A stretch of 6,936 nucleotides of DNA from an uncultured Mucispirillum sp. (lineage in GTDB: Bacteria; Chrysiogenota; Deferribacteres; Deferribacterales; Mucispirillaceae): the NCBI GenBank assembly GCA_947177675.1, contig CAMWVK010000081.1, forward strand, positions 1-6,936. Reading direction: 5' to 3'. The translations under genes were made by a program, and so were the position numbers. Under the pieces are notes generated by a model that did no database searches, had not been told where the DNA came from, and worked only from the letters and a program-made list of their open reading frames with translations. Shown here piece after piece: positions 1 to 6,936 of the stretch (its first letter is position 1; each line of letters begins with the position of its first letter).

Positions 1-744
1 TTTCCCAAGCTGTAACCAGCTAATAGTATCTGGATTTGATGTATCTGTATTATTATTTTGTGCTCTTATACATATTGGATAAGGTTTATTATTTGCAAGA
101 TTTGTTATTACAAAATTATCCAAAGATGTATTATATTTTGGGTCAAACCTTTGTAATTTTGGATTTAAACAATCATCATCTGCTAAAATGCCAAACTCAT
201 CATATTTACTTTTGTTTTTTATTTTAATTAATATAGTTTTATCGCCTGCATATACTTCTACATCATCTTCTGTAAGTTTTGATGGATAAGGCACTGGGGC
301 TGCTTTTGTCATTGTATAGCCGCTGCAGCCATAACTTTCATAACAGGCTCTTATATATACAAAATATTCTATTTCATCTTTTATAGGATATTCCAAAACA
401 ATATTATCACCATCTGCTTCTATTTTAGCTGGCTTAATAAATAAACGCATAAGACCAGAACCATCATTTAACTGCTGCACTTTTCCTATATTTTCAGCAG
501 TATCAATATTATCAACTTTATTAATAAAAAATTCAAAATATGGCAGAATTGGATTGTCTGCTGCACCAATACCAGATATTTTTGAAAATTGAACTGTAAA
601 TTCTTCATGTTTTGCTGTTATTTCAATAGTTTTAGGACCATTAATAACAATACCAGATGGAGCATTGTCCTCACTGCTGCAGCCTGCTAAAAAAACATTT
701 AATAAAATAAAATATAAAAAGAATTTTTTATATATTAACTTCAC
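1..744 (-). CDS. Partial lipoprotein with fibronectin-III-like domains (LP1; C-terminus outside the window)
   Basis: The minus-strand frame is open from a GTG at 744 to the left edge, giving 248 residues without a stop. It begins MKLIYKKFFLYFILL and reaches a lipobox LAGC, so a signal-peptidase-II lipoprotein anchored at the first Cys is predicted. The GTG is chosen because GGAG lies 5 nt upstream (750-753), a typical signal peptide follows at once, and no ATG precedes it. After a short linker come beta-sandwich, FN3-like segments (about 35-145 and 145-248) with the typical IEYFVYIRA and YPICIRAQ strand ends. It is a paralogue of LP2 at 4444-6668: both share FSKISGIGA/FNRISGIGA, a P(V/I)P.P..L linker, and a DDC motif. 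Its own poly-G run is absent. The C-terminal part is not visible, so a nucleotidase-like domain like that of LP2 is only an inference. The specific function is unknown; a surface or periplasmic binding protein is likely. Confidence 0.85.
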   Translation of the reverse strand, partial: MKLIYKKFFLYFILLNVFLAGCSSEDNAPSGIVINGPKTIEITAKHEEFTVQFSKISGIGAADNPILPYFEFFINKVDNIDTAENIGKVQQLNDGSGLMRLFIKPAKIEADGDNIVLEYPIKDEIEYFVYIRACYESYGCSGYTMTKAAPVPYPSKLTEDDVEVYAGDKTILIKIKNKSKYDEFGILADDDCLNPKLQRFDPKYNTSLDNFVITNLANNKPYPICIRAQNNNTDTSNPDTISWLQLGK

Positions 745-749
745 AAAAT

Positions 750-753
750 CTCC
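750..753 (-). promoter_or_regulatory. Ribosome binding site of LP1
   Basis: GGAG on the minus strand lies 5 nt before the GTG at 744-742. It decides the start, because the lipoprotein has no ATG before its signal peptide. Confidence 0.6.
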
Positions 754-763
754 AACAAATATA

Positions 764-824
764 GTGTTACCTATCACACATTTCGTGCTACCGTATTACA
801 TTATATATATATCGTGTTACTATA
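764..824. repeat. Three GTGYTAC operator-like repeats over the LP1 promoter
   Basis: Plus-strand copies are GTGTTACCTAT (764-774), GTGCTACCGTAT (785-796) and GTGTTACTATA (814-824). The last lies in the spacer between the -35 and -10 of the LP1 promoter, the middle one sits at the expected transcription start, and the first is in the leader. The middle copy also forms a dyad, GTGCTAC-C-GTATTAC. This placement suits a repressor, but I do not recognise the regulator. Confidence 0.4.
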
Positions 825-913: not shown

Positions 914-918
914 AGGTG
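914..918 (+). promoter_or_regulatory. Ribosome binding site of the FmdE-family gene
   Basis: AGGTG at 914-918 lies 5 nt before the ATG at 924. The in-frame GTG at 918 overlaps this site and has no usable spacing, so ATG 924 is preferred. Confidence 0.6.
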
Positions 919-923
919 TGAAA

Positions 924-1478
924 ATGGTATCGTATGAAGAAGATTTAGAAAAAGCTGCTGCTTATCATGGTCATTTATGCAGCGGTCAGATACTGGGTGT
1001 TAGAATGGCAAGGCTTGGTTTAAAAGTTATGGGGCTTTCTGACAGAGACCCTAAAAAAATGCGTGATTTACTTGTATTTGTAGAATCTGACAGATGTGCA
1101 ACAGATGCAGCCTATGTAGTAACAGGGGCAACTATGGGCAGAAGAAGAATGAAATATAAAGATTATGGCAAAATGGCTATGTCGTTTTACTACATTCCTA
1201 CAAAAAAAGCTGTAAGAATTAAACCTATTAATAACGACAGACCACCAGAAGGTGCAAATTTAAAAGAATTCTGGGCAAAATATACTGATGAAGAACTTTT
1301 CAAATGGGAAAATGTGGAAATTATTGTTGATGAAAATGATTTACCAGGCAAACCACGAGACCATGCAGTATGCTGCCAATGTGGCGAAAGGATTTTAGAC
1401 GGCAGACAGGTAGAAATACATGGCGAAATAAAATGCAGAGCCTGTTCTAATGGTGCATATTATAAAGTAATAAGTTAA
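924..1478 (+). CDS. FmdE-family protein with C-terminal zinc-ribbon-like Cys4 motif
   Basis: The product is 184 residues, a usual size for the FmdE family, which is named after a gene in methanogen formylmethanofuran dehydrogenase operons but is widespread in anaerobes. The N-terminus has the family signature Y-H-G-H-L-C-S-G (His15, His17, Cys19), followed by ESDRC..DA (Cys58, Asp61) and TGATMGRRR. The end holds two CxxC pairs (Cys151/Cys153 region with Cys150, and Cys171/Cys174), a zinc-binding knuckle. The family is thought to bind metal; the exact biochemical role is not established, and formylmethanofuran dehydrogenase itself is not indicated here. The protein is cytoplasmic, with no signal peptide. 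ATG 924 is used rather than GTG 918 because of RBS spacing. The stop codon is only 8 nt before the next gene, whose Shine-Dalgarno overlaps it, so the two are co-transcribed and probably translationally coupled. Confidence 0.88.
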   Translation: MVSYEEDLEKAAAYHGHLCSGQILGVRMARLGLKVMGLSDRDPKKMRDLLVFVESDRCATDAAYVVTGATMGRRRMKYKDYGKMAMSFYYIPTKKAVRIKPINNDRPPEGANLKEFWAKYTDEELFKWENVEIIVDENDLPGKPRDHAVCCQCGERILDGRQVEIHGEIKCRACSNGAYYKVIS

Positions 1479-1486
1479 GGTGCAAA

Positions 1487-2242
1487 ATGGATAAATGGAA
1501 ATTATATGATGAATTAATAGAAAATATTGAAGATAGATACACTGTGGAATACTGCTTTGTAAGCCCACACTGGGTTGGCGTAAAAAGCCAAATGGGGCTT
1601 GGACTTGCTATGCGTATGTCTGAAAGCCCAATAGTTACAAAACTTACTGGCAATATGAAAGGTATGAAGTTAAAAGATTTAGCAGTTTATGCAAAATCAT
1701 GGGATTTTCATGAAGCTTCTATTGGTATGGCAGCTGTCAATTCATACTATAATGGTCAAAATAACACAGCACTTAATAATATTAATGAAAATACATCTAA
1801 TTTGAGTATTTTTGACTTAATAAAAGATAAAGTGTATGGTAAAAAAGTAACTATTGTAGGACATTTTCCAAATATTGAAAAAATGAGAGAAATATGCCAA
1901 TTAACTATTTTAGAGCGTAAGCCTGATTTAGCAAGGTATGATTTACCAGACCCTGCATGTGAATTTGTTTTATCTGAACAGGATTACCTTTTTACAACAG
2001 CAGTCACCTTAATAAATAAAACTCTGCCAAGACTTTTAGAACTTTCAAAAAATGCTAAAACTTACCTTGTAGGCCCTACTACTCCACTTACTGATATTAT
2101 GATTAACTATGGTATAAAATGCCTTTCTGGCTCTATTGTGCTGGAAGAGGAAAAAGCAAAAGATTTATTTTTGGAAGGTGCAATTCTGCAGTCTGTTATA
2201 AAAAATAAATATATTAAAATGGTCAATATATTAAAAAATTAA
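1487..2242 (+). CDS. DUF4213/DUF364 putative heavy-metal-chelation protein
   Basis: The 251-residue protein matches the DUF364 family, whose structural prototype combines an enolase-N-like N-terminal domain (DUF4213) with a Rossmann-like C-terminal domain and was proposed to chelate heavy metals. Visible landmarks are MKLKDLAVYAKSWDFHEASIGMAAVNSYYN (broken here as M..N, about residues 60-89) in the first domain, VTIVGHFP (Gly125-Pro128) opening the Rossmann-like part, DLPDPACE (152-159), and the family-typical GPTTPL (196-201) followed by YGIKCLSGS. It has no signal peptide, so it is cytoplasmic. The Shine-Dalgarno AAGGTG overlaps the stop of the FmdE gene and lies 4 nt before the ATG. Association with FmdE suggests a joint role in handling a metal or metal cofactor; that is inference, and no reaction is known. 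Confidence 0.85.
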   Translation: MDKWKLYDELIENIEDRYTVEYCFVSPHWVGVKSQMGLGLAMRMSESPIVTKLTGNMKGMKLKDLAVYAKSWDFHEASIGMAAVNSYYNGQNNTALNNINENTSNLSIFDLIKDKVYGKKVTIVGHFPNIEKMREICQLTILERKPDLARYDLPDPACEFVLSEQDYLFTTAVTLINKTLPRLLELSKNAKTYLVGPTTPLTDIMINYGIKCLSGSIVLEEEKAKDLFLEGAILQSVIKNKYIKMVNILKN

Positions 2243-2371: not shown

Positions 2372-4384
2372 TTAAATTTTAGCAGTTAAAGACAATGTGT
2401 AACTCCTGCCTTTTAATGGATAGAACTGCCTTGTCTCATATAAAGTATCTGTAAGATTTTTTACTGCAAAATCTATCTGAAAATGCTCATTTATAAAAAA
2501 ATTAATATTTAAATGGGCTAAAAAATAATCATCTAATTCATTAATACCATAAATATCTGCATATCGTGAAGTAATATATTCTACAACTGGTGTTATTGCA
2601 ATATACTGGCATGGTGTAATTTTTACATAGGCTTTACCTGTAAAAAGTGGATAGTATGTCATCACTGCAGCTTTTGACTGACTTTTATCTATATTATAGG
2701 CATTAACTGATAAATTAAGCCCTATTTCTGCATAATCCAAAATGTAAATATTTGATAAAAATTCAAAGCCATATAATGATACTTTATCTAAATTCATTAG
2801 ACAGTCTACTTGAGTTGTTGGAACAACAGGGTTTGGGACCTGCATAACCACTATTTTATCTGATACACTGCTGTAATATAAAGCAGACTCTATATAAAGC
2901 ATATTAAATAATGAACCTTTATACCCCAGCTCTACATGGTCTGCAACTTCTGGTTTTAAATTAGGGTTTGGCAGGTTTTCTCCAAGCTGTGTGGAATACC
3001 TGTCGCTCATTGTTGGAAACTGGTTTCTTCTAGCATAAGTTAAGTATAAATTATTATCATCAATAAACTCATAAAAAATACCAAACTGACCTGCAAATAA
3101 AAATCTGTTTATAACATCAACATTATATGATGACAGCCCAAGCTTATTATTAAAGCTGTTTTCTTTGCTGAAAAAATAAGATGGTATTAAGCTGTCAAAT
3201 CCTAATGTTCCAGAAATAGTAAGCCTTTTTAATGGCTTGTAATCATATTCTACCCCAAAAGACAACTTATTTTCTGTTATATTTATATCTTCTTCTACAC
3301 TGATACTATCTTCACTGTATCCTATATGGTTATCCTGCCTGTATGTTATGGCGGATTTAATAATATGATTATCTGTTATTTTATAACTGCCATTGATACT
3401 AAAACCTGCAGCATATTCATCATACATACTTGTGCGGTATGGAGCATCATAATTAACATGTATAAGGCTTGAATACATACTCATTGAATTATCATAGGTA
3501 TCATAAAAAGCCAAAAAGTTAAGCTCGTAATTTTTTTTCTCATATTTTCCATGCAGTGATATACTTTGATGATAATCATAATCCCAGCCCCATAATGAAT
3601 ATACTGAACTGACTTCTGGGCTTACCATTCCTTTATCTATATCACTGTAAATATATGCAAACCATATATCAAGTCCGTCAATTGGTGTGGTGCCTGCTAT
3701 TACCGTATTTTTTATATCATTTCTATCAGAAAAAAGCCTGTTTCTGTCTTTTTGTAAACTTCCCTGCATAGATTTATAACTTTTTGGCAGCAGATAATGG
3801 TCTATCTCTCTATACTGTAATGTATTCTTAAAATAAAATTTAGAAGTTTTAAAGCCAAGACTGAAAATATTATAAACTGATGCAAAATCAAAATTATCAT
3901 CATTTTCTATTGTTGTTTTCAAAAATACTTCAAACTTTTCCGCTGGTTTTGCAAGAGTTAAAAGCACTGCTCCACCCATACCATTTGAGCCTTGCAGCAT
4001 AGAAGAATAACCTTTTTGTATTGTTACAGATGCAGTATCCCCTAAAAGCATTGAAGAACTGTCACCAAGACCATTATATGGGTTTAATGTAGATATACCA
4101 TCTATTATTACTGGTATTGTAGAGCTTGAAAAGCCTCTTATCTTAAATGTAGTATCACCCCTTGCTCCACCTTCATCTATCATAACACTGGGACTTAGTG
4201 TTAATGCATCTGATAATGAATAAACATTCATATTTTGCATATCTTCCTGTGTTATAGTCTGCCCTTTCTCTTTTGTTTTAGTATCTGTTACAATGACAGT
4301 GTCAGTTTCCACATGTTCAGTATATTCTGCATAGCTGACACCAAAAGCAAAAATAATAAAACAAAAAATAAAGTATTTTGGCAT
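2372..4384 (-). CDS. TonB-dependent outer-membrane receptor, probably for an iron compound
   Basis: The 670-residue protein has the standard architecture and size. A Sec signal peptide ends in VSYA (cleavage after about residue 19). A TonB-box-like TDTVIVT follows at 27-33. The plug domain spans roughly 42-150, with LSDALTLSPSV, the FKIRGF motif (80-85), PVIIDGI (91-97) and GMGGAVLL at its end. The rest is the 22-strand barrel, rich in alternating aromatic strands, including the family-typical NPNLKPE (473-479) and a C-terminal YTLSLTAKI strand. It imports a bound substrate across the outer membrane using TonB-ExbB-ExbD energy; those genes are not in the window. The substrate cannot be read from the sequence, but the Fur box upstream of the preceding gene favours a siderophore, haem or other iron source; a cobalamin receptor is the main alternative. 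GGAG lies 5 nt before the ATG. It follows LP2 by 59 bp, with a terminator-like hairpin between. Confidence 0.93.
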   Translation of the reverse strand: MPKYFIFCFIIFAFGVSYAEYTEHVETDTVIVTDTKTKEKGQTITQEDMQNMNVYSLSDALTLSPSVMIDEGGARGDTTFKIRGFSSSTIPVIIDGISTLNPYNGLGDSSSMLLGDTASVTIQKGYSSMLQGSNGMGGAVLLTLAKPAEKFEVFLKTTIENDDNFDFASVYNIFSLGFKTSKFYFKNTLQYREIDHYLLPKSYKSMQGSLQKDRNRLFSDRNDIKNTVIAGTTPIDGLDIWFAYIYSDIDKGMVSPEVSSVYSLWGWDYDYHQSISLHGKYEKKNYELNFLAFYDTYDNSMSMYSSLIHVNYDAPYRTSMYDEYAAGFSINGSYKITDNHIIKSAITYRQDNHIGYSEDSISVEEDINITENKLSFGVEYDYKPLKRLTISGTLGFDSLIPSYFFSKENSFNNKLGLSSYNVDVINRFLFAGQFGIFYEFIDDNNLYLTYARRNQFPTMSDRYSTQLGENLPNPNLKPEVADHVELGYKGSLFNMLYIESALYYSSVSDKIVVMQVPNPVVPTTQVDCLMNLDKVSLYGFEFLSNIYILDYAEIGLNLSVNAYNIDKSQSKAAVMTYYPLFTGKAYVKITPCQYIAITPVVEYITSRYADIYGINELDDYFLAHLNINFFINEHFQIDFAVKNLTDTLYETRQFYPLKGRSYTLSLTAKI

Positions 4385-4393
4385 ATATACTCC

Positions 4394-4423
4394 AAAAAGG
4401 GAAAAGGGACTATCCCTTTTCCC
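4394..4423 (-). terminator. Intergenic hairpin plus U-run between LP2 and the receptor gene
   Basis: On the minus strand, GGGAAAAGGGA and TCCCTTTTCCC form a perfect 11-bp stem around a 3-nt loop (4423-4399), followed directly by five T (4398-4394). The next four bases are the GGAG Shine-Dalgarno of the receptor gene (4393-4390). This is a canonical intrinsic terminator in form. With only 14 bp to the ATG there is no room for a promoter after it, so receptor expression must come from read-through or processing of the LP2 transcript. Partial termination, giving more LP2 than receptor, is the likely effect; mRNA end protection is an alternative. Confidence 0.75.
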
Positions 4424-4443
4424 AGTATGAATATTTTTACTAC

Positions 4444-6668
4444 TTAATTCTCTTTATAATCATTTGCAGTATTTCCCGGCACCCCGCCTGATAATTTTAC
4501 TCTGCCGTCTAAATATGGAGCAATGCTGTTTTTATATGCAATATACTCTGCAACAGCTTTAAGCATTGTAACTGGCTGATTATTTTCGTCTAATACAGGC
4601 GTTACATTTTTTCCTAAAAATGCAACATACATTTCTTTTGCAGTTTTAGTTGTTGTAAGAATCTTATACTGTTGGTTAGACACTATCTGCTTATCATTGA
4701 TTAATAAACTGTCTTTTTGTATTTTGCCTCTTTTATAGCCCATAACAGATGCTTCTGTAGGATTTCCTGATTGTGGATTAGCCTCTTCATAAGATAAAAG
4801 ATAGCAGTTTTTAGGGTCATTTACTGCATCATATAATGCATCATATAATGCATCTGTACCACTGTCTATTCCTGTTGACTTGTCAACAGTTGCACAGTTT
4901 GTATTAAATCTTTCATTAAATTGATTAATATCGTATGTCAGATATTCTATTATATACTTAACTTCACTTGATGGAATCCCCCAGTATTTACCATTATATG
5001 TTGTGCCGCCAGAACCGCCATAATGGTTATTTCTATAAACTGCTGCAGCTTGACCAAAAAGTGTTTTTGTATATGGGTTAGATTCATCTCCAACTGTTGG
5101 ATATAAATCTAAATTAAGGTTATAATCATCATTCTTAATTAAATCAGACCCACTTAATGTTACAGTTACTAATGTATCATCTAAATAATCTGAAGTAATA
5201 ACCATCTGTAAAAATGCTGGTGTAATAGTCTGATTTGCTTGTATTCCCTGACTCATCATATCACCAATAAGCCATGCAAAATCTGTTTCTATACCAGCCA
5301 TTTCTGTGCCATACCATTTTACAGCATCAGCAAAAAGATTTCCAAGTGCAGTTTCTTTACCTCTTGTAAGCCTGTCTGTATTTGGTCTGCCACCTGCATT
5401 ATAGGATTCACTAATACGCCAGAAATCGCTGTGCGGCACATCTTCTGCATAAATAAAATTACCTGCTGCAGTGCCTAAATACTGATTTAAGTCGCTTAAA
5501 TCAACTGGAGTATATACTGGTGTTACTTCTACAGAATCGCTTTCTATATAGAGAGCATCACTACTCATGGATGAGTTTGTTGCTCTCAGTTTAATGTAAT
5601 ATGTTTTGTCATTATCAAGATTTGATATAACAGATGATACAGTATCTTGAGTAAAAGGAATAGGGTCATCTATCCATGTATAATTTGTATTATCAATAGA
5701 ATATCCTGCCTGATATTCTGATACAGCAGCATCTCCAACAGATGCAGCATTAAAAGTAAATTCTGCTCTTTTATTTTTGCCTTGTACCTCATTAATTACT
5801 GGGTTTGCAGGCGACTGAGTTGAATCTTTTCCTATAAGAAGTGCTTTTTCATCGTCTGTTGCATAAATATTTGTGCCAAATACTTTCCATGTACTATTAC
5901 CATCTGCATCTAAAATACCATTTGCATTGTGTGCAGCTATACATATAGAATGAGATGATGAACCATCATATGAATCAGTATTATTTTCAAGTTGGACAAT
6001 ATAATGATCAGAATTTAAAGATAAAGCTGGTGTCCATTTGCTATACTGCCCCGATTTTGACGGACAATCATCAACATGCACTGAATAAAGCTCATCATCT
6101 TTTTTAGTCCAAGAAATTCTAAGATGCTTATCTCCCTGCTCAACTTTCACATCTTCAAGCTGAGTTGGAAGTGGTATAGGTTTAGCATAGACATATGTCC
6201 AGTCAGAAACACCATAGCCACAGCGAGTGAAGTCAGACCTTAACCATATAGTATATCGTTTACCATCTGTCAAATTTGGATAATATATAAATGGAAAATC
6301 TTCTGTGCTGTCTGCATCTTCTTGCTCTTTTTTAATAGTAAATCTAACAAGCAGACTATTGTTATACTCTATTGTGCCTAAATCATCAGCCTTATCAACA
6401 TTATTATCTGTGCCTATTTTCACATTGTAATAAGGCAGACATGCATCAGTACCTTCTGCACCAATGCCACTAATCCTGTTAAACTGAATATTTATGCTTT
6501 CATGCAGTGCTGTTGGAGAAACATCAACTGGGTAATATGATGAAACATTAATCCCCCCCCACTGTCACCACCATTATTACTGCTTGAACTACATGCAGTA
6601 AGTAAGGCAAACATAATCAATAACATAAACAAAAATTTTTGTTTAAATAAACAAGAAACCTTTATCAT
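4444..6668 (-). CDS. Surface lipoprotein LP2: FN3-like domains plus degenerate 5'-nucleotidase C-terminal domain; out of frame in a poly-G run
   Basis: Translation starts at ATG 6668 (AGGAG 6 nt upstream) with a lipoprotein signal ending LLTAC, Cys26, then a Ser/Gly/Asn tether. The frame breaks in a run of eight G (6560-6553): as written, translation stops after 58 residues at 6494-6492. Nine G would join it to the long frame ending at 4444, giving 741 residues, and the joined region aligns with LP1 (NRISGIGA). FN3-like segments lie near 40-150, 164-270 and 286-400. Residues about 425-735 resemble the 5'-nucleotidase C-terminal domain: RLTRGKETALGN (Glu439), TDFAWLIGD, VTLSG, RGKIQKD...YKILTTT and a final LDGRVKL. 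The metallophosphatase domain is absent, and the NGGGIR and GGDGY motifs are replaced (GDMMSQGI; TAKEMYVAF), so a binding rather than hydrolytic role is inferred. A 12-bp tandem repeat encodes DALYDALYDA. It is probably co-transcribed with the receptor. Confidence 0.8.
4825..4854. repeat. 12-bp tandem repeat, 2.5 copies, inside LP2
   Basis: The unit TGCATCATATAA occurs at 4825-4836 and 4837-4848, with half a unit after it. On the coding strand it gives DALYDALYDA. The unit is a multiple of three, so copy-number change would add or remove four residues without breaking the frame. Confidence 0.8.
6553..6560 (-). repeat. Homopolymeric G8 tract at the LP2 frameshift
   Basis: Eight C on the plus strand read as eight G in the LP2 coding strand, 36 codons after the start and within the Ser/Gly tether. 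Nine or six G restore the reading frame. A run of eight G is highly unusual in sequence of about 30% GC. Confidence 0.9.
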
Positions 6669-6674
6669 AAAACA

Positions 6675-6679
6675 CTCCT
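6675..6679 (-). promoter_or_regulatory. Ribosome binding site of LP2
   Basis: AGGAG on the minus strand lies 6 nt before ATG 6668. It supports this start over the internal GTG at 6423, which begins inside a conserved domain and lacks a signal peptide. Confidence 0.7.
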
Positions 6680-6696
6680 ATAAAAATTAATTATAT

Positions 6697-6725
6697 AAAA
6701 TAATATATAACGATAATAAAGTCAA
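6697..6725 (-). promoter_or_regulatory. Sigma70-type promoter for LP2 and the receptor
   Basis: On the minus strand -35 TTGACT (6725-6720; five of six) is followed after 17 bp by TATTTT (6702-6697; four of six). A TATAAT at 6695-6690 is also present but would be 24 bp away. A leader of roughly 20-25 nt would precede ATG 6668. Confidence 0.5.
6706..6717. promoter_or_regulatory. Partial Fur-like half site within the promoter spacer
   Basis: TATAACGATAAT on the plus strand resembles two successive GATAAT hexamers of a Fur box and falls exactly between the -35 and -10 of the LP2 promoter. It is weak alone but agrees with the strong box 27 bp upstream. Confidence 0.35.
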
Positions 6726-6743
6726 TACCTAAATACAATAGCA

Positions 6744-6762
6744 TATAATGATAATCGTTATT
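6744..6762. promoter_or_regulatory. Fur box upstream of LP2
   Basis: TATAATGATAATCGTTATT matches 16 of 19 positions of the classical Fur consensus GATAATGATAATCATTATC. It lies just upstream of the -35 at 6725. Fur bound with Fe(II) would be expected to repress LP2 and the receptor when iron is plentiful. The flanks are very AT-rich, but the match includes both hexamer repeats and the inverted half. Confidence 0.7.
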
Positions 6763-6797
6763 TATTTTATATATAATGTATAGTATATATATAAATA

Positions 6798-6935
6798 TCA
6801 AAATAATGTATTATTTATAATATTTTTTTTACTATTCATCATTCTATATAAGATTGTTTTTGATGATAATATAAGCCAGAATAACAGGATTAATGTTTGA
6901 AGCGAATAAGTTATTGCTGATATTACTCTTTTAAT
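6798..6935 (-). CDS. Possible C-terminal 45 residues of an upstream membrane protein (cut by the right edge)
   Basis: A minus-strand frame is open from the right edge to a TGA at 6800-6798. It contains a hydrophobic stretch (LQTLILLFWLILSS) followed by a basic tail, as at the end of a membrane protein. Base composition supports it: the last 85 bases are about one-third GC, like the genes here, whereas the stretch from 6740 to 6850 is far more AT-rich. Against it, a similar-sized open frame exists on the plus strand and 45 codons can stay open by chance. No family can be named. Confidence 0.3.
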   Translation of the reverse strand: MKRVISAITYSLQTLILLFWLILSSKTILYRMMNSKKNIINNTLF

Positions 6936-6936
6936 C

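What the first reader, a model, noticed from the sequence alone, without database searches (positions are those of the whole stretch)
6553..6560. Poly-G tract puts a surface lipoprotein out of frame: candidate phase-variable contingency locus
Seen directly: a perfect lipoprotein start (RBS, ATG, signal peptide, lipobox) is separated by a run of eight G from a 702-codon open frame, and one extra G joins them into a protein that aligns with the paralogue LP1 across the junction. As written the product stops at 58 residues. Homopolymeric G tracts near the 5' end of surface-protein genes are the classic substrate of slipped-strand phase variation (Campylobacter, Helicobacter, Neisseria). The rest of the gene shows no other stop or frameshift, which argues against an old pseudogene. 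A homopolymer miscount in the assembly would look the same.
Basis: partly seen in the sequence, partly recalled or inferred. Interest (0 to 1): 0.78.

Follow-up and report, generated by a model that had tools for sequence, protein, structure and literature searches.

The report
Poly-G switch in a Mucispirillum lipoprotein
In a Mucispirillum gut bacterium, the gene for a predicted surface lipoprotein is split out of frame at a run of eight Gs, one of 43 G or C runs of eight or more in that genome, and these runs likely act as random on/off switches for predicted surface proteins and respiratory enzymes.

Summary
In detail: eight G (window 6553-6560, minus strand) separate a lipoprotein start (product 58 aa) from a 706-codon open frame. 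The window lies in a Mucispirillum assembly with 43 G/C runs of at least 8, 37 of them exactly 9; about 0.6 runs of 9 or more are expected by chance. Relatives encode the protein intact; three orthologous loci lack the run. The other runs recur in set designs: inside open frames (14), as C9/C10 in the spacer of TTGACA/TATAAT-type promoters before lipoprotein-like genes (7), and at one codon of seven molybdoenzymes, all split as assembled. Nine of ten genus genomes carry the promoter design. Best reading: a slipped-strand contingency locus, off as assembled, one of a genus-wide set. Not shown: length variation within a population, since no reads were held; and a run of exactly eight is by itself within chance. 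A miscounted assembly would change the state, not the kind of locus. It is a new member of a known kind, in a phylum for which my library searches found no report, with respiratory enzymes as unusual targets.

The parts
6553..6560 (-). G8 homopolymer (C8 on + strand) in the Ser/Asn/Gly linker just after the lipobox; frame junction
6492..6668 (-). Start piece as written: signal peptide, lipobox LLTAC, stops at 58 aa
   Evidence: matches residues 1-34 of intact relative P0002
4444..6549 (-). Body frame of the lipoprotein: FN3-like region and a C-terminal domain like the ligand-binding domain of 5'-nucleotidases; no metallophosphatase domain found
6675..6679 (-). Ribosome-binding site AGGAG, 6 nt before the ATG
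   Evidence: read from the sequence
6697..6725 (-). Promoter-like site TTGACT-17-TATTTT; similar TTGACT sequence upstream of three orthologues; the scan as a whole found no excess over shuffles
6744..6762 (+). Fur-box-like site, 3 mismatches to the recalled consensus; best match in orthologues has 6 mismatches
4399..4423 (-). Hairpin with T run between lipoprotein and receptor genes; a hairpin sits at this place in three orthologous loci
2372..4384 (-). TonB-dependent receptor gene, next downstream; same order in three orthologous loci
1..777 (-). Paralogous lipoprotein LP1, runs off the contig, no G/C run of 8 or more

Best explanation
A run of eight G splits the reading frame of a predicted lipoprotein gene in a Mucispirillum genome, and the run likely works as a slipped-strand contingency switch that would turn the protein on and off as its length changes. 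Shown: the run, the split frames, intact homologues, 43 long G/C runs in the genome with a sharp peak at nine, and the same run designs in other species of the genus. Inferred: that the run gains and loses G during replication, so that cells of one population differ; that in the off state ribosomes stop after 58 codons and the receptor downstream may be expressed less; and that the protein, when made, would sit on the surface and capture a ligand, perhaps a nucleoside-like one, for the TonB receptor beside it. As assembled, the gene is off. The locus is one of a genus-wide set that would use two switch types, frame (translation) and promoter spacer (transcription).
For: Genome-wide excess: 43 runs of 8 or more, 37 of them exactly 9, with 2 runs of length 6 and none of length 7 in 201,333 nt of run-bearing contigs. 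Same peak as published for Campylobacter (9 in 53%, 10 in 26% of tracts; passages of PMC6321876). Body without stop over 706 codons and dN/dS 0.22-0.31 against three orthologues (0.16-0.21 among those). Intact relatives P0002 and P0011 have a Gly-rich linker at the same place. A sister lipoprotein gene, L033, has G9 a few codons after its lipobox, within one open frame. Runs kept at orthologous places in G006, some with another length. Natural open and split copies of one run-bearing molybdoenzyme family. Seven poly-C promoter spacers before lipoprotein-like genes; 35 pattern hits against 1 for the reversed control.
Against: No length variation within a population was seen; one genome per species is held. 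A run of exactly 8 is within chance for the genome (2.6 expected, 3 seen). Orthologous loci L067-L069 and L071-L074 have no G/C run of 6 or more, so the run is not conserved at this gene. dN/dS towards the window copy is higher than among the intact orthologues. Mismatch repair genes are present in the genus: mutS1 hits in nine of nine other genus genomes, two below the cut-off, and none in the window's own 86% complete genome; mutL over the cut-off in nine of ten, own included; Campylobacter is repair-poor (recalled). A 2014 survey gives strong avoidance of mononucleotide runs of 8 or more in four Deferribacteres genera, with no occurrence of the name Mucispirillum in its text (passages of PMC4060949). 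The truncated 659-aa body record stands on 2 contigs, the longer of 9367 nt, so the off-state call was made once more, but perhaps from the same sample.
Confidence: 0.74

Rival explanations
1. Assembly or sequencing miscount: the true run has another length and the gene is intact in the sampled cells. The locus could still be a switch, but its stated off state would be an artefact.
For: Homopolymers are common indel errors (recalled); the run differs from the genome's usual length; the nearest relatives are intact.
Against: The same assembly gives one length at 37 of 43 runs; a second contig record carries the same truncated body (possibly the same sample).
Confidence: 0.13
2. Recently dead gene: a chance frameshift in a lineage that no longer needs the lipoprotein.
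For: Run absent in orthologues; a run of 8 is expected by chance 2.6 times per genome; raised dN/dS; five of ten genus genomes gave no match to the gene.
Against: No other lesion in 706 codons; dN/dS well below 1; the lesion falls exactly at a G run in a genome with 40 runs of nine or more where 0.58 are expected.
Confidence: 0.1
3. The run is a slippage site at expression, not in DNA: RNA polymerase or ribosomes slip on the G run and make some full-length protein from a fixed sequence.
For: Transcription slippage on homopolymers is known (recalled; title and start of abstract of PMC5574713); seven molybdoenzymes share the same split with the same run length, which would suit a fixed recoding signal.
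Against: Other genes with the same design are in frame (L115, L116, L126, L033); poly-C runs in promoter spacers cannot work by recoding.
Confidence: 0.05

Closest known systems
Poly-G/C contingency loci of Campylobacter and Helicobacter
   Same: Many G/C runs per genome with a peak at 9 (for Campylobacter); targets include surface and glycan genes (recalled for those genera)
   Different: Phylum Deferribacterota; mismatch repair genes present in the genus; a repeated promoter-spacer class; respiratory molybdoenzymes among the targets
Promoter-spacer switches of Neisseria (opc poly-C, porA)
   Same: Homopolymer in the promoter, run length would set -35/-10 spacing (titles in the reference list of PMC5084427)
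   Different: Here a recurrent cassette, TTGACA-N-C9-N-TATAAT, spacer 15 in 25 of 35 hits, in ten genomes, often before lipoprotein-like genes
5'-nucleotidase family (T. thermophilus 2z1a, CD73, E. coli UshA)
   Different: No metallophosphatase domain found; FN3-like region and lipoprotein signal instead
Lipoprotein partners of TonB receptors (SusD/SusE, HmuY type; recalled)
   Same: Lipoprotein gene directly before a TonB receptor gene in the window and three orthologous loci; one of 26 family members hits SusE weakly
   Different: Main domain is of the 5'-nucleotidase type; partnership is inferred from gene order alone

Membership tests
Simple-sequence contingency locus (slipped-strand phase variation) | Homopolymer runs far beyond chance in the genome | tested here: met
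   40 runs of 9 or more seen, 0.58 expected
Simple-sequence contingency locus (slipped-strand phase variation) | Run placed where length sets frame or promoter spacing | tested here: met
   Frame junction at 6553-6560; 7 promoter spacers elsewhere
Simple-sequence contingency locus (slipped-strand phase variation) | Both states found in nature | tested here: inconclusive
   For this gene: split in the window, intact in relatives of other lineages without a proven run. For the molybdoenzyme family: both states with the run
Simple-sequence contingency locus (slipped-strand phase variation) | Reversible length change within a clonal population | not testable with these tools
   No reads; one genome per species
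Simple-sequence contingency locus (slipped-strand phase variation) | Run length at this gene beyond chance by itself (helpful, not strictly defining) | tested here: not met
   3 runs of exactly 8 seen, 2.6 expected
5'-nucleotidase | C-terminal substrate-binding domain | tested here: met
5'-nucleotidase | N-terminal metallophosphatase domain | tested here: not met
   Not among the six Pfam families found in 26 members
Lipoprotein | Signal peptide with lipobox and Cys | tested here: met
   LLTAC at residues 22-26, by eye
TonB-dependent receptor (neighbour gene) | Plug and beta-barrel domains over Pfam cut-off | tested here: met

The most novel reading that the evidence does not exclude
Mucispirillum, a mucus-dwelling gut commensal of the phylum Deferribacterota, runs a genome-wide set of G9/C9 switches that randomises not only its lipoprotein coat (frame and poly-C promoter-spacer switches) but also its anaerobic respiration: a shared 5' cassette of Tat signal plus G9 sits on seven molybdopterin oxidoreductases in one genome and on relatives in other species, so that single cells would differ in the electron acceptors they can use.
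Probability: 0.45. Interest if true: 0.82.

Novelty: new member of a known kind. Interest (0 to 1): 0.6.

Why it matters
Multi-locus homopolymer switching is known mainly from host-adapted pathogens; a review says that this association may come from selection during host colonisation or from databases biased towards pathogens and commensals (passage of PMC11868660). A gut commensal of another phylum with the same run-length peak as Campylobacter would suggest that the strategy goes with life on host surfaces. The molybdoenzyme cassette would extend it to respiration. It also warns that Mucispirillum gene catalogues will call such genes truncated or missing.

Tried and rejected
Chance as the cause of the genome's runs: rejected. 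Loss of mismatch repair as the cause: not supported; mutS1 hits in nine of nine other genus genomes and mutL in the own genome, though no mutS1 was found in the own genome, which is 86% complete. A conserved run at the lipoprotein gene: rejected, the orthologous loci examined have none. Contig ends as proof of mixed run lengths: 9 of 43 runs lie within 60 nt of a contig end against 0.90 expected, but 5 of the 9 lie in the repeated molybdoenzyme cassette, which breaks assemblies by itself; I do not use it as proof. Fur control: one site with 3 mismatches, best match 6 mismatches in three orthologues. Promoter scan of window 4300-6936: no excess over shuffles. Rfam, PADLOC and PHROGs were not searched. 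Literature: the held library gave no report of phase variation in Mucispirillum or of Deferribacter-type bacteria with it (12 of 163 papers listed). The three papers holding both Mucispirillum and the phase-variation term mention them apart or only in a cited title (passages). PMC5285517 on M. schaedleri has 0 occurrences of 'phase var', 'homopolymer' and 'frameshift' in its main text (supplements not seen). 'Phase variation' with 'molybdopterin oxidoreductase' gave 0 papers; 'phase varia', 'molybdo' and 'homopolymer' together 5 papers, of which I saw passages of one (PMC1097732: mobA, a molybdopterin-cofactor gene, in a table of candidate repeats) and only the listing of four.

Full report
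WHAT IS THERE. The window is contig C81 (6936 nt) of a 1.88 Mb, 329-contig, 86% complete assembly. Orthologues of its lipoprotein lie in three named Mucispirillum records; the genus belongs to Mucispirillaceae, Deferribacterota. On the minus strand, an AGGAG site and an ATG at 6668 begin a signal peptide with lipobox LLTAC. After a Ser/Asn/Gly linker comes G8 (6553-6560), and the frame ends at 58 residues. Another frame, open from 4 nt before the run for 706 codons, holds the rest of the gene.

THE PIECES BELONG TOGETHER. I searched them apart. The start piece matches residues 1-34 of P0002 (31 of 34), the body residues 41-733 of the same 733-aa protein (564 of 701). P0002 is a natural intact relative. 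Orthologues L067, L068 and L069 are intact too, 71-73% identical. In the genus, 5 of 10 genomes, own included, have a match to the body.

THE RUN IS NOT CONSERVED HERE. L067-L069 have no G/C run of six or more in their loci; L071-L074 likewise. The nearest relatives P0002 and P0011 carry a Gly-rich linker at this place, but their DNA is not held. So the run probably arose recently in the linker (inference).

THE GENOME. The genome has 43 G/C runs of 8 or more: 3 of eight, 37 of nine, 3 of ten. In 201,333 nt of run-bearing contigs, run lengths 5, 6, 7, 8, 9, 10 occur 36, 2, 0, 3, 37, 3 times. A first-order Markov estimate gives 0.58 runs of nine or more for the whole genome, and 2.6 of exactly eight. 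The peak at nine is therefore not chance, while a single run of eight could be. The sample was chosen for its runs, but the counts of 8 and above are those of the whole genome. Campylobacter tracts peak at the same lengths (9: 53%, 10: 26%; PMC6321876, passages).

CLASSES. By position as assembled (my sorting), 14 of 43 runs lie within one open frame (8 of the 14 within 330 nt of its mechanical start), 9 at a frame split, 7 in promoter spacers, 5 at gene ends or junctions, and 8 in other intergenic places. Pfam was run on 30 genes at or next to runs. Families seen: MFS transporter, sulfatases, PKD, RCC1 and Big_2 proteins, a peptidase M66/TagA protein with ricin-type lectin domain, FdtA, RgpF and hexapeptide glycan genes, a solute-binding protein, TetR, a response regulator, DUF4910, HlyD, TRL and molybdopterin oxidoreductases; eight of the 30 had no family.

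PROMOTER SWITCHES. Seven runs are C9 or C10 on the coding strand between TTGACA and TATAAT, TAGAAT or TAGATT, upstream of an ATG. All seven genes pass a simple lipobox test, against 21 of 139 ORFs in the same contigs (that background contains these genes). Among 39 genomes, own included, the strict pattern gives 35 hits in 10 genomes: nine of ten Mucispirillum genomes and one of another genus of the family; the reversed pattern gives 1. The spacer is 15 in 25 of 35, 14 in 3, 16 in 5, and 17 and 19 in one each (my count; the pattern limits the range). Of 30 hits in other species, 26 came as loci: 22 had a gene by my rule, 12 of these lipoprotein-like and 10 not, and 4 had none (four loci that repeat own ones dropped). 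A 17-nt spacer is the textbook optimum (recalled), so most copies would be weak as assembled (inference). This resembles neisserial opc and porA (titles in the reference list of PMC5084427).

MOLYBDOENZYMES. Seven of the 12 PF00384 matches in the genome have a G9 run directly after a DIIY codon stretch. In two of them the whole Tat-type signal (SRRSFLKG) is visible; in the other five the contig ends inside the cassette and only its last 12-15 residues are seen. In all seven the DIIY frame ends 3-14 codons after the run starts, while another frame is open. In other species, L115 and L116 (G002, G003) and L126 (G006) are in frame with nine G; L113 (G009), L114, L118 and L120 (G006) are split. 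In all, 11 of 14 copies examined are split. I know of no report of phase-variable respiratory molybdoenzymes.

CONSERVATION OF RUNS. Flanks of the 43 runs were compared with 28 loci of G006, a one-contig genome, which do not cover all its runs. Runs at orthologous places: FdtA (9 and 10), Big_2 lipoprotein (9 and 8; 9 and 9), L037/L132, L059/L139, L049/L126 and other molybdoenzymes (9 and 9), a poly-C promoter (9 and 10). In other pairs the run is shortened (L036 junction run, 10 and 7), or absent or interrupted (L060/L134, both L064 runs against L136). So runs are kept at some genes and turn over at others. In the listed part of G006's runs, nine is again the commonest length. Runs of nine occur in ten of ten Mucispirillum genomes; elsewhere in the family they range from none (G012) to many (G011, G013), and in the order they are many in G024 and few or none in most others (counts of overlapping 9-mers).

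ALTERNATIVES. A miscounted run would change the state, not the kind of locus. A dead gene is not excluded, but the body has no other lesion and dN/dS is 0.22-0.31 (0.16-0.21 among intact orthologues). Recoding on the run fits the uniform split of seven molybdoenzymes but not the in-frame copies or the promoter runs. Repair loss is not the cause by gene content.

STATUS. Shown: runs, frames, relatives, excess, recurrence. Not shown: length change in living cells, expression, surface exposure, benefit.

Noticed in passing
L049, L051, L053-L056, L058 (own genome): Seven molybdopterin oxidoreductases carry G9 after a similar DIIY-ending 5' cassette and are all split there as assembled; five contigs break in the cassette.
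   Followed up: partly
L039, L040, L042, L043, L047, L048, L052: Poly-C9/C10 in the spacer of sigma-70-type promoters before lipoprotein-like genes.
   Followed up: yes
L045:1659-4355: A peptidase M66/TagA protein with ricin-type lectin domain and lipoprotein-like start carries an in-frame G9 at nt 196.
   Followed up: no
L075:913, L076:1103: In G008 and G009, a C8 run lies some 10 bases upstream of a TTGACT site near paralogues of the window lipoprotein.
   Followed up: no
window 4399-4423: Strong hairpin with T run between lipoprotein and TonB receptor genes; a hairpin is present at the same place in three orthologous loci.
   Followed up: partly
window 918-2242: FmdE-family gene followed by a DUF4213/DUF364 gene (putative heavy-metal chelation).
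   Followed up: no
L143:1456-1466 (G006): A G11 run at a frame split in a gene whose start looks like a glycosyltransferase (by eye).
   Followed up: no
G011, G013, G024 (other genera): Many runs of nine G also in other genera of the family and in one genome of another family of the order.
   Followed up: no
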